A DNA stretch of 64,000 bases, taken from contig NZ_CWKH01000003.1 of the NCBI RefSeq assembly GCF_001245615.1, forward strand, positions 992,001-1,056,000. The letters run 5' to 3'. Both the position numbers and the translations under genes were made by a program. This DNA comes from Mycolicibacterium neworleansense. GTDB lineage: Bacteria; Actinomycetota; Actinomycetes; Mycobacteriales; Mycobacteriaceae. The notes under the pieces are model-generated. The model made no database searches and was not told the DNA's origin. It worked only from the letters and a program-made list of their open reading frames with translations. Shown one piece after another: positions 38,630 to 64,000 of the stretch (position 1 is the first letter of the stretch; every line of letters starts with the position of its first letter).

Positions 38630-39742
38630 CTATTCCGAGGTTCTTTCCAGGACAGACTTGAGCTGTTCGATGTACCCACTCAGTGCTTCCGGAGTGAACA
38701 TTTCGAAGTGGGTGCAGTCCACCGGTCGCACCGTGATGTTCCCGGAAACATAAGGGCGCCAACTGTGCAGAAGCGCTCTGGCCGCCCTGCGGTTACGCAG
38801 CCGCGCCAACTTCGACATGAGCCCATCCCCGCTGGTCTCCTCGCACCGAGGACGGGCAGCCGAGAACATCACGACATCACCATCAAACAGTTCAGGCCGA
38901 TGGTCGAGCAACAACAACTGACCCGAGCTCACACTGCGCGCCATGAATTCGACCAACTGCCGCGACGGAGGACTGGCCCCGTGCCGAGCAAAGATATCGG
39001 CCACCCGCGAATACGTCAGCAGCCCAAAATGCATCGGAATCCGGACCTTGTTGGTCCGCAGGATGTAATCCAGAACCCATCCTTCGGCCACCGCCTGATT
39101 CTGCGCGATCTTCCTGGTGATGCTCTTCCAGAATCTGTTCGGGTTCAACAGGCCGTCGAGCAACACCAACCGCTCAACCTCACACCCGCGCCGCTGAAGC
39201 TCCACAGCCAATGCATGAGCGACCACACCACCGAATGACCAGCCCAGAATCCGATACGGCCCAACCGGATACAAGTCCTGCAGCCGATCTGCGTAGTTCG
39301 CCGCCATACCCTGGATGGACAGCGCTTCGGCCTCACCGTCGGCTGAAGCTCGGTTGATACCGACGATCGGGCCATCGACATACTGGCCCAATGCCCGATA
39401 CGACCAACTCAACCCGAAACCGTCATGGACACAACACAACGGAACACCTTCACCCGCCTTCAGAATCTCGACCGGGACCACTTCTTGCGAACTCTCATCC
39501 CGACCGACCTGCGCAGCCAAACTGCGCACCGTCGGTGTCTCGAACACCGAACGAACCGCAAGATCGGCATCCAGGCAGGTGTTGATCGCATTGACCAACC
39601 GAGTCGCAGACAGTGAATCTCCGCCCAGATCGAAGAAGGAATCGTCGACCCCGACCCGCTCCAGCCCGAGCACCTGGGCGTAGATCCCAGTGAGGATTTC
39701 CTCGGTGGCTCGCCGGAGCACGCTACTGCCGAGCATCGACAT
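38630..39742 (-). CDS. Detached carrier-thioesterase protein (end of NRPS B)
   Basis: Encodes the T domain (DDSFFDLGGDSLSATR) and a type I thioesterase with GWSFGG (about 39230), LLLDHRPELFDGD and the catalytic His in CTHFEMF (about 38710). It should be the C-terminus of NRPS B but is in another frame. The open frame begins at an ATG at 39781; ATGs at 39742 and 39736 lie just upstream of the NRPS B stop (39723-39725) and could allow coupled re-initiation, giving about 370 residues. So it may be a working stand-alone T-TE protein, or the dead end of a broken gene. The thioesterase is nearly identical to that of NRPS C, and the T domain is identical over 182 bases to T1 of NRPS C. It should release the finished lipopeptide as an acid. 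Confidence 0.75.
   Translation of the reverse strand: MSMLGSSVLRRATEEILTGIYAQVLGLERVGVDDSFFDLGGDSLSATRLVNAINTCLDADLAVRSVFETPTVRSLAAQVGRDESSQEVVPVEILKAGEGVPLCCVHDGFGLSWSYRALGQYVDGPIVGINRASADGEAEALSIQGMAANYADRLQDLYPVGPYRILGWSFGGVVAHALAVELQRRGCEVERLVLLDGLLNPNRFWKSITRKIAQNQAVAEGWVLDYILRTNKVRIPMHFGLLTYSRVADIFARHGASPPSRQLVEFMARSVSSGQLLLLDHRPELFDGDVVMFSAARPRCEETSGDGLMSKLARLRNRRAARALLHSWRPYVSGNITVRPVDCTHFEMFTPEALSGYIEQLKSVLERTSE
38901..39535 (-). repeat. Thioesterase segment nearly identical to NRPS C
   Basis: Matches 18567-19201 at a constant offset of 20334, with long runs of identity (for instance 39104-39535) broken by a short divergent stretch around 38985-39055. This points to recent duplication or gene conversion between the two thioesterases. 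Confidence 0.88.
39528..39709 (-). repeat. Swapped carrier-domain cassette at the end of NRPS B
   Basis: By eye identical over 182 bases to 29991-30172 (T1 of NRPS C), while the flanking DNA on both sides matches the last module of NRPS C instead. The T domain has therefore been replaced as a cassette. Its 5' edge in coding direction is exactly where the frameshift lies. Confidence 0.9.

Positions 39743-64000: not shown

What the first reader, a model, noticed from the sequence alone, without database searches (positions are those of the whole stretch)
38630..64000. NRPS A plus NRPS B reads like the assembly line for fortuitine
Seen: N-methylating module, two plain modules, N-methylating module, two modules with the same threonine-type code (DYWSVGMVH), two further modules, then thioesterase. 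Known, recalled from memory: fortuitine of M. fortuitum is acyl-Val-MeLeu-Val-Val-MeLeu-Thr(OAc)-Thr(OAc)-Ala-Pro-OMe. Positions 2-9 match in number, methylation pattern and the Thr-Thr pair. The neighbours also fit: malonyl-type PKS and FadD (straight acyl chain), two acyltransferases (acetyl esters), ICMT-like enzymes (methyl ester), MmpS/MmpL/Gap (export). Inference: this is a fortuitine-type cluster. I do not recall this cluster being described for fortuitine.
Basis: partly seen in the sequence, partly recalled or inferred. Interest (0 to 1): 0.95.

Follow-up and report, generated by a model that had tools for sequence, protein, structure and literature searches.

The report
Gene cluster behind the lipopeptide fortuitine
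Two giant enzymes in a relative of Mycobacterium fortuitum, with a small finishing protein, line up as nine building steps with nitrogen-methylating parts at steps 2 and 5, the order remembered for the decades-old lipopeptide fortuitine, so they likely make a fortuitine variant, and a third giant enzyme beside them would offer the same assembly line a second ending.

Summary
NRPS A runs 6,471 bases past the window and supplies a starter-type C domain, one complete module and the start of the N-methylating module. With NRPS B and a separate T-TE protein this gives nine modules, N-methyltransferases in 2 and 5, and no epimerisation domain.

The window genome is not M. fortuitum. The orthologous cluster is in a genome identified here as M. 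fortuitum. There the adenylation codes fall into the classes {1,3,4}, {2,5}, {6,7}, {8}, {9}, the pattern of Val-MeLeu-Val-Val-MeLeu-Thr-Thr-Ala-Pro (structure recalled). Thr and Ala codes are supported by mycobacterial lipooctapeptide lines. Val, MeLeu and Pro rest on register alone.

In the window genome module 4 has a Leu-like code, so a [Leu4] variant is predicted. In 8 of 8 complete clusters a third four-module synthetase stands beside the line, begins without a C domain and bears NRPS B's type of N-terminal linker. My reading is a forked line, one trunk with two alternative tails. Untested: product, fork, acetylation, methyl ester. My literature searches found no description of the cluster.

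The parts
50894..64000 (-). NRPS A, the part in the window (residues about 2158-6525 of 6525): end of module 2 (NMT), module 3, module 4, module 5 (C-A-NMT-T) and the terminal bare C domain; the gene continues 6,471 bases beyond the window
50897..52234 (-). terminal C domain of NRPS A with no A domain behind it (the docking point for NRPS B, and, as proposed, for NRPS C)
39723..50891 (-). NRPS B: A-T | C-A-T | C-A-T | C-A, codes DYWSVGMVH, DYWSVGMVH, DVWSVAAVY, DVWNVAG(W)Y = modules 6-9
38630..39781 (-). separate T-TE protein (PP-binding + thioesterase, GWSFG), overlapping the end of NRPS B in another frame; one open frame with NRPS B in 8 of 8 close relatives
37176..38567 (-). AT2, WS/DGAT-like acyltransferase (SHCLIDG), proposed Thr O-acetyltransferase
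35086..36420 (+). AT1, paralogue of AT2 (SHCLTDG)
36469..37143 (-). ICMT-like methyltransferase 1, next to the T-TE/AT2 genes, proposed C-terminal methyl-ester former
17595..18260 (+). ICMT-like methyltransferase 2 (51% identical to the first over 202 residues), tail to tail with the TE end of NRPS C
18269..31783 (-). NRPS C, third synthetase: A-T | C-A-T | C-A-NMT-T | C-A-T-TE, no N-terminal C domain; codes DYWSMAGVY, DVWSVAAVY, DIWGLGQMW, DVWNVAG(W)Y; N-terminal linker of the NRPS B type; proposed alternative tail
9960..16295 (+). polyketide synthase KS-AT-DH-ER-KR-ACP, AT motif GHSLG (malonyl type by recall): straight saturated chain extension
7812..9551 (-). fatty acyl-AMP ligase (FadD28/FadD21 type) for the acyl starter
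16638..17558 (+). Sap/GAP-type membrane protein (export)
518..6270 (-). two MmpL transporters (518-3952 and 3388-6270, overlapping open frames)
6267..6776 (-). MmpS
6990..7805 (-). alpha/beta hydrolase (possible editing thioesterase)

Best explanation
NRPS A, NRPS B and the adjoining T-TE protein are a nine-module lipopeptide assembly line with N-methyltransferase domains in modules 2 and 5, the module order recalled for fortuitine, and they likely make a fortuitine-type acyl-nonapeptide, predicted to carry Leu instead of Val at position 4 in this genome. Proposed course: the FAAL (7812-9551) activates a fatty acid, the fully reducing malonyl-type PKS (9960-16295) lengthens it, and the starter-type C domain of NRPS A acylates the first residue. 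Modules 1-5 build Val-MeLeu-Val-Leu-MeLeu (Val-MeLeu-Val-Val-MeLeu in M. fortuitum). The terminal C domain of NRPS A joins this to Thr on NRPS B, modules 6-9 add Thr-Thr-Ala-Pro, the TE hydrolyses the chain, AT1/AT2 acetylate the Thr residues, an ICMT-like enzyme makes the methyl ester, and MmpS/MmpL/Sap export it. Shown by sequence: module number and order, N-methyltransferase positions, starter-type first C, absence of epimerisation domains, Thr- and Ala-type codes, and the enzyme families of the neighbours. Inferred: Val, MeLeu, Leu4 and Pro identities, acetyl and methyl-ester steps, export, and that the split T-TE still works. The neighbouring NRPS C, which starts without a C domain and has NRPS B's type of N-terminal linker, is most simply read as a second, alternative tail for the same NRPS A trunk.
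Confidence: 0.84

Rival explanations
1. NRPS A and NRPS B have the fortuitine layout, but the product is another acyl-nonapeptide: the residues at modules 1-5 and 9, which are not calibrated in M. fortuitum, differ from fortuitine, and the acyltransferases or methyltransferases do something else.
For: Val, MeLeu and Pro codes have no characterised mycobacterial counterpart in my data; the Pro code is atypical; module 4 differs in the window genome and M. septicum.
Against: In the M. fortuitum genome the class pattern is exact, by chance once in 7,560; the Thr pair and Ala are supported by an independent line; outside the orthologous clusters, none of the lines that I decoded has nine modules with NMT in 2 and 5 (several were fragments).
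Confidence: 0.13
2. NRPS C is not a second tail but an independent tetramodular synthetase whose first A-T is a loading module, making a free tetrapeptide (Val-Ala-N-methyl-X-Pro type) with its own TE and ICMT.
For: A-T starts are common in NRPSs (general knowledge); NRPS C has its own TE and, in 4 of 8 complete clusters plus the M. peregrinum fragment, its own ICMT within 61 bases; NRPS B lies directly behind NRPS A and could be its only partner.
Against: Its N-terminus is a cut C-A linker of the NRPS B class: mean identity 79% to NRPS B N-termini against 50% to internal linkers, in 8 of 8 species. The other A-first protein of the genome outside this cluster (C1_27411) also follows a protein with a bare terminal C. 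NRPS C has four modules in each of the 8 and sits among the acyl-chain and export genes.
Confidence: 0.3
3. In the strain of the window the line is dead or altered: the split between NRPS B and the T-TE marks a decaying copy, or the split is a sequencing error.
For: 8 of 8 close relatives have NRPS B and T-TE in one open frame; the lipooctapeptide synthetase of the same genome is also split relative to M. fortuitum (883 + 7439 aa against 8201 aa), which would fit an error-prone assembly.
Against: The three synthetase genes are otherwise open over about 44 kb with the core motifs in place; a T-TE protein could act in trans; module 4 is shared with M. septicum at 91-95% identity, so it is inherited, not decayed.
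Confidence: 0.25
4. The cluster is a glycopeptidolipid (GPL) or GL8P-type locus.
For: It shares the neighbour set MmpS, MmpL, Sap/GAP, FAAL, PKS and acyltransferases known from GPL loci (family knowledge).
Against: Nine modules in A+B, no epimerisation domain, TE and no reductase domain in the Pfam lists of the three synthetases; the GL8P-type line is a different locus of the same genome (C1:1326743-1358924).
Confidence: 0.01

Closest known systems
Fortuitine of M. fortuitum (acyl-Val-MeLeu-Val-Val-MeLeu-Thr(OAc)-Thr(OAc)-Ala-Pro-OMe; recalled, no paper read)
   Same: nine residues, N-methyl at 2 and 5, Thr-Thr at 6-7, Ala at 8, starter acylation; the cluster is present in a genome identified as M. 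fortuitum with matching code classes
   Different: in the window genome and M. septicum module 4 has a Leu-like code; Pro, acetyl and methyl ester untested
GL8P, glycosylated lipooctapeptide of M. abscessus (MAB_4690c/4691c; PMC11978893, outline and passages read)
   Same: mycobacterial N-acylated NRPS product; the lines of this type read here are likewise split between C and A and share the Thr and Ala code families
   Different: eight modules, E domains at 1, 3, 6, 8, glycosylated; in the window genome a line of this type is a separate locus on another contig
L5P lipopentapeptide of M. avium subsp. paratuberculosis (PMC8103206, start of the abstract and passages read)
   Same: acylated linear peptide with one N-methyl residue and a C-terminal methyl ester
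   Different: five residues, D-Phe start; its genes were not compared here
Glycopeptidolipids (PMC3537567, start of the abstract in the listings)
   Same: acyl-peptide made by NRPS plus PKS; MmpS/MmpL/Gap/FAAL-type neighbourhood (recalled)
   Different: tripeptide-amino alcohol core
Forked assembly lines such as the vatiamide pathway (recalled, no paper read)
   Same: one upstream line shared by several downstream partners
   Different: there PKS-to-NRPS in a cyanobacterium; here a five-module NRPS trunk with two four-module TE-ending tails

Membership tests
Fortuitine biosynthetic cluster | nine modules in one line with starter acylation | tested here: met
   modules; first C groups with the first C of the N-acylated lipooctapeptide line
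Fortuitine biosynthetic cluster | N-methylation at positions 2 and 5 only | tested here: met
   N-methyltransferase regions conserved in 7 of 7 complete NRPS A
Fortuitine biosynthetic cluster | same residue (Val) at 1, 3 and 4 | tested here: not met
   window genome: module 4 DFWTLGAIY against DYWSMAGVY at 1 and 3; met in 5 of 7 complete NRPS A, M. fortuitum among them. Hence filed as a variant.
Fortuitine biosynthetic cluster | same residue (Leu) at 2 and 5 | tested here: inconclusive
   codes identical in the window (DAFLVGAIW), in M. fortuitum, G124 and M. septicum (4 of 7), not in 3 of 7; identity as Leu not calibrated
Fortuitine biosynthetic cluster | Thr-Thr at 6 and 7 | tested here: met
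   DYWSVGMVH twice; DFWSVGMVH, one letter away, is named in the Thr section of PMC12283262 and is the code at the three Thr positions of the lipooctapeptide lines
Fortuitine biosynthetic cluster | Ala at 8 | tested here: met
   DVWSVAAVY, same code as the Ala position of the lipooctapeptide lines
Fortuitine biosynthetic cluster | Pro at 9 | tested here: inconclusive
   DVWNVAG(W)Y has Val236 but not Gln239
Fortuitine biosynthetic cluster | all-L peptide (recalled) | tested here: met
   no epimerisation domain and no post-E type C domain in NRPS A, B or C
Fortuitine biosynthetic cluster | O-acetylation of both Thr | tested here: inconclusive
   two acyltransferase paralogues with HxxxDG; predicted fold of AT2 matches WS/DGAT and PapA5 among others; substrate untested
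Fortuitine biosynthetic cluster | C-terminal methyl ester | tested here: inconclusive
   ICMT/PEMT-family genes beside the TE genes; activity untested
Fortuitine biosynthetic cluster | product present in the strain | not testable with these tools
   needs LC-MS/MS
Glycopeptidolipid locus | NRPS for a tripeptide-amino alcohol core | tested here: not met
   nine modules with TE; definition from the start of the abstract of PMC3537567
GL8P locus | 6+2 modules with E at 1, 3, 6, 8 | tested here: not met
   no E domain in NRPS A, B, C; such a line is elsewhere in the genome
Forked NRPS line (one trunk, two tails) | a second downstream synthetase without N-terminal C domain and with the same type of N-terminal linker | tested here: met
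   8 of 8 complete third synthetases; linker identity 79% on average
Forked NRPS line (one trunk, two tails) | no other upstream donor for the second tail in the genome | tested here: inconclusive
   other proteins with a terminal C-like domain: C1_5122, followed by its own A-first partner, and the last mycobactin-type protein at C1:475251-479750, whose terminal domain scores only 47.6 bits
Forked NRPS line (one trunk, two tails) | both trunk-tail products are made | not testable with these tools
   needs mutants and LC-MS/MS

The most novel reading that the evidence does not exclude
A forked nonribosomal assembly line: one five-module acylating trunk (acyl-Val-MeLeu-Val-Val/Leu-MeLeu) hands its chain from a terminal bare C domain to either of two four-module, TE-ending tails. 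Tail 1 (Thr-Thr-Ala-Pro, fortuitine) is conserved across the M. fortuitum complex. Tail 2 is exchanged from species to species (Val-Ala-MeX-Pro type; Thr-Ala-Thr-Val type in M. fortuitum; Thr-Thr-Thr-X; Thr-Ala-Leu-X), often with its own methyltransferase, so each species makes a constant and a species-specific surface lipononapeptide.
Probability: 0.5. Interest if true: 0.82.

Novelty: new variant of a known kind. Interest (0 to 1): 0.72.

Why it matters
Fortuitine is a decades-old natural product (by recall one of the first peptides sequenced by mass spectrometry) for which my searches found no genes. The cluster makes its biosynthesis directly testable by a single deletion in M. fortuitum. 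If the second tail works, it would be an unusual case of natural combinatorial NRPS assembly and would predict a further, species-specific lipopeptide in members of the M. fortuitum complex, useful for identification and for studying surface antigens. It also gives a natural set of matched trunk-tail junctions for NRPS engineering.

Tried and rejected
Rejected: GPL or GL8P locus (domain order; a GL8P-type line found elsewhere in the genome). Rejected: that the window is M. fortuitum itself (2cc1 match 86%, against 99% in G754). Thought unlikely as a donor for NRPS C: C1_5122, which also ends in a bare C but is followed directly by its own A-first partner C1_27411, itself ending in a T domain.

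Led nowhere or weak: the ten literature searches. ('fortuitine'): one paper, a scorpion-toxin review, not read; listings, nothing on the cluster seen in them. led to the GL8P paper. (peptidolipin, to calibrate Pro), (M. avium rough-variant lipopeptide): its structure was not found. PMC4035055, PMC4365757 and PMC8949500 (passages only) gave no calibration and no fortuitine. First structure prediction of AT2 with 7 sequences was poor (mean pLDDT 41.8); the second, with an alignment of 69 (two window proteins and 67 of the 120 listed relatives), was good (84.6). Pfam gives no match above its cut-off for AT1 or AT2. The plasmid collection had no match; Rfam had none at gathering score. The atypical module-9 code motif was sought in 401 genomes (9 with it). 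It is the last module before a TE in several lines, but not in G589, G065b or G102a, so it is not a pure 'C-terminal residue' mark.

Rows dropped: M. peregrinum (cluster broken over contigs) from counts of complete NRPS A and third synthetases; M. setense from counts of complete NRPS A (shortened there, in two frames); G049 (a more distant cluster, 35 kb held) from the counts of close clusters; G148, G005 and G188 were fetched but not analysed further. The linker statistic located the N-terminal windows by a motif and the internal windows by a looser one, which favours the contrast; at least one internal linker reaches 83% to an NRPS B N-terminus and 80% to an NRPS C one.

Full report
WHAT IS THERE. 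The window is bases 992001-1056000 of contig C3 of a 6.29-Mb mycobacterial genome. NRPS A (50894 to beyond 64000, minus strand) is 6,525 aa; its start lies 6,471 bases outside the window. Its domain order is C-A-T | C-A-NMT-T | C-A-T | C-A-T | C-A-NMT-T | C. NRPS B (39723-50891) is A-T | C-A-T | C-A-T | C-A, and a separate protein (38630-39781) carries T-TE. The bare C domain at the end of NRPS A and the bare A domain at the start of NRPS B make one module, so the line has nine modules with N-methyltransferases in 2 and 5. That is what is there.

CODES. Nine-residue adenylation codes in the window genome: 1 DYWSMAGVY, 2 DAFLVGAIW, 3 DYWSMAGVY, 4 DFWTLGAIY, 5 DAFLVGAIW, 6 and 7 DYWSVGMVH, 8 DVWSVAAVY, 9 DVWNVAG(W)Y with a one-residue gap in the A5 region. 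The code positions are recalled from the GrsA numbering and placed by conserved motifs, then by alignment.

SAME CLUSTER IN RELATIVES. The ICMT gene (36469-37143) led to named relatives: M. septicum, M. houstonense, M. setense and M. peregrinum at 84-95% identity. G754 is M. fortuitum: its beta-lactamase is 99% identical to PDB 2cc1 (2cc1's organism is recalled) and its AT2 is identical at 457 of 461 residues to an NCBI protein named [Mycolicibacterium fortuitum]. By the same marker the window genome is 86%, so it is another species of the complex; in several cluster genes (MmpL 97%, HSP90 94%, AT1 93%), though not all, it is nearest to M. septicum. The NRPS B codes read Thr, Thr, Ala, 'Pro' in 9 of 9 close clusters, with V or I at one position. 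N-methyltransferase regions of modules 2 and 5 are present in 7 of 7 complete NRPS A.

MATCH TO FORTUITINE. In M. fortuitum the codes are 1=3=4 DFWSMAGVY, 2=5 DAFLVGAIW, 6=7 DYWSVGMVH, 8 DVWSVAAVY, 9 DVWNVAG-Y, and NRPS B and T-TE are one open frame. The classes {1,3,4}, {2,5}, {6,7}, {8}, {9} are those of Val-MeLeu-Val-Val-MeLeu-Thr-Thr-Ala-Pro (recalled). A random order of the same classes gives this once in 7,560. Modules 1, 3 and 4 agree in 5 of 7 complete NRPS A; in the window genome and M. septicum module 4 is different. There the two species share a foreign stretch: over residues 3550-5050 they are 91-95% identical to each other while the other five species are at 61-76%; in the three sampled stretches before and behind it M. 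septicum (74, 80, 90%) is not consistently closer than the others (73-88%). So module 4 was replaced as a block; the exact ends are not resolved.

CALIBRATION. Leclercq and others (PMC11978893; outline and passages read) determined by NMR the octapeptide T-A-F-I-Y-L-T-T of M. abscessus GL8P, made by a six-module and a two-module NRPS with D residues predicted at 1, 3, 6 and 8. Lines of that type, with E domains after 1, 3, 6 and 8, are in the window genome (C1:1326743-1358924), in M. fortuitum and in Mycobacteroides sp. LB1, with the same codes in all three: Thr DFWSVGMVH, Ala DVWSVAAVY, Phe DVWTVVAMC, Ile DFWTVGVMW, Tyr DAESLAAIC, Leu DFWTLGAVY. M. abscessus itself was not read, and in that paper the bioinformatic prediction for position 6 was Thr where NMR found Leu. 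With this key, modules 6-7 are Thr, module 8 is Ala, and module 4 of the window genome is Leu-like. Val, MeLeu and Pro are not calibrated. Pro is the weakest: 59 of 71 Pro-activating domains carry Val236 and Gln239 (PMC12283262, passage), and module 9 has Val236 but Trp239.

STARTER AND STEREOCHEMISTRY. In a tree of 37 C/E domains the first C of NRPS A groups with the first C of the N-acylated octapeptide line (100/100), the four C domains that follow E domains form another group, and all other C domains of NRPS A, B and C lie in the ordinary group. The program warns that long branches meet there. There is no E domain in NRPS A, B or C, as expected for an all-L peptide (fortuitine's stereochemistry is recalled).

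THE THIRD SYNTHETASE. NRPS C (18269-31783) is A-T | C-A-T | C-A-NMT-T | C-A-T-TE and has no C domain at its start. The slot is filled in 8 of 8 complete clusters, each time with four modules, a bare A start and a TE, but with changing codes: Val-Ala-MeX-Pro type (window, M. septicum, M. houstonense), Thr-Ala-Leu-X (M. lutetiense), Thr-Ala-Thr-Val type (M. fortuitum), Thr-Thr-Thr-X (M. setense, M. boenickei, HK-90). Its N-terminus is a C-A linker cut at the same place as in NRPS B (TADLSRRLSSMD..DEDEH.ELF.WGN): mean identity NRPS B to NRPS C 79%, NRPS B to internal linkers 52%, NRPS C to internal linkers 50%, over 9 B, 8 C and 69 internal linkers. In the window genome three NRPS proteins start with a bare A: NRPS B, NRPS C and C1_27411 of the octapeptide line. 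Three end in a C or C-like domain: NRPS A, C1_5122 (partner of C1_27411) and, with a weak one of 47.6 bits, the last mycobactin-type protein. NRPS A is the only one of these in the same locus as NRPS C. An ICMT-like gene lies 12-61 bases from the TE end of the third synthetase in 4 of 8 complete clusters and in the M. peregrinum fragment. It is elsewhere in M. lutetiense, not found in M. setense and M. boenickei, and in pieces in HK-90. I read this as a forked line: the five-module trunk can pass its chain to NRPS B or to NRPS C. This is an inference. The main rival is that NRPS C starts its own tetrapeptide. Against the fork: NRPS B follows NRPS A directly, the last C domain of NRPS A would have to accept Thr and Val, and nothing shows that NRPS C is expressed.

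CAUTION ON THE WINDOW STRAIN. NRPS B and T-TE overlap in different frames in this genome and are one open frame in 8 of 8 close relatives. Whether this is real is unknown; I describe it only.

NOVELTY. No paper on fortuitine or on this cluster was found (open-licence PMC papers only; listings). The parts are all of known kinds; the layout (constant tail, variable second tail) is what is new if it works. Hence 'new variant of a known kind'.

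Noticed in passing
G000 contig C1:1326743-1358924 (L106, L107): A GL8P-type lipooctapeptide line (codes T-A-F-I-Y-L-T-T, E after 1, 3, 6, 8) in the window genome, in M. fortuitum (L196, L197) and in Mycobacteroides sp. LB1 (L194, L195), although the GL8P paper calls it conserved only in the M. abscessus complex and a small number of related species; in the window genome its first protein is split (883 + 7439 aa against 8201 aa in M. 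fortuitum).
   Followed up: partly
C1_27411 end, L106 from about base 4410: The octapeptide line ends, after the last E domain, with a further post-E type C domain and a T domain; no A or TE domain was found in the roughly 4 kb read behind it.
   Followed up: partly
window 33024-35003: An HSP90 (htpG-like) gene lies inside the cluster next to AT1; it is there in 7 of 8 close relatives too, not reported in G733.
   Followed up: no
window 39723-39781: NRPS B and its T-TE overlap in different frames, while 8 of 8 close relatives have one open frame.
   Followed up: partly
NRPS A residues about 3550-5050, window about 55320-59820: Module 4 and its surroundings are a block shared with M. septicum (91-95%) and foreign to five other species (61-76%): natural module replacement changing one residue of the peptide.
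   Followed up: partly
G297 (M. setense), L138-L139: NRPS A is shortened to about two modules in two reading frames: real deletion between near-identical modules or an assembly collapse.
   Followed up: no
G049:C26:1-35000 (L161, L162): A more distant cluster with the same neighbours (PKS 83%, FAAL 80%) whose NRPS B codes read Thr-Ala-X-'Pro': a further lipopeptide of the family.
   Followed up: partly
L046-L048: ICMT-like proteins 58-59% identical over full length to the cluster's enzyme in Ktedonobacter: possible horizontal transfer.
   Followed up: no
L143-L156: A-domain subfamily with a one-residue deletion (YGPTE-TWY, code DVWNVAGWY) in 9 of 401 family genomes, substrate unknown (Pro by register here).
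   Followed up: partly
G065:C1:2580001-2615000 (L163, L164), G102:C1:4442001-4475000 (L165, L166): Another mycobacterial line with codes reading X-Phe-Ile-Leu-Ala-'Pro'-TE by the same key, perhaps the lipooctapeptide reported from rough M. avium.
   Followed up: no
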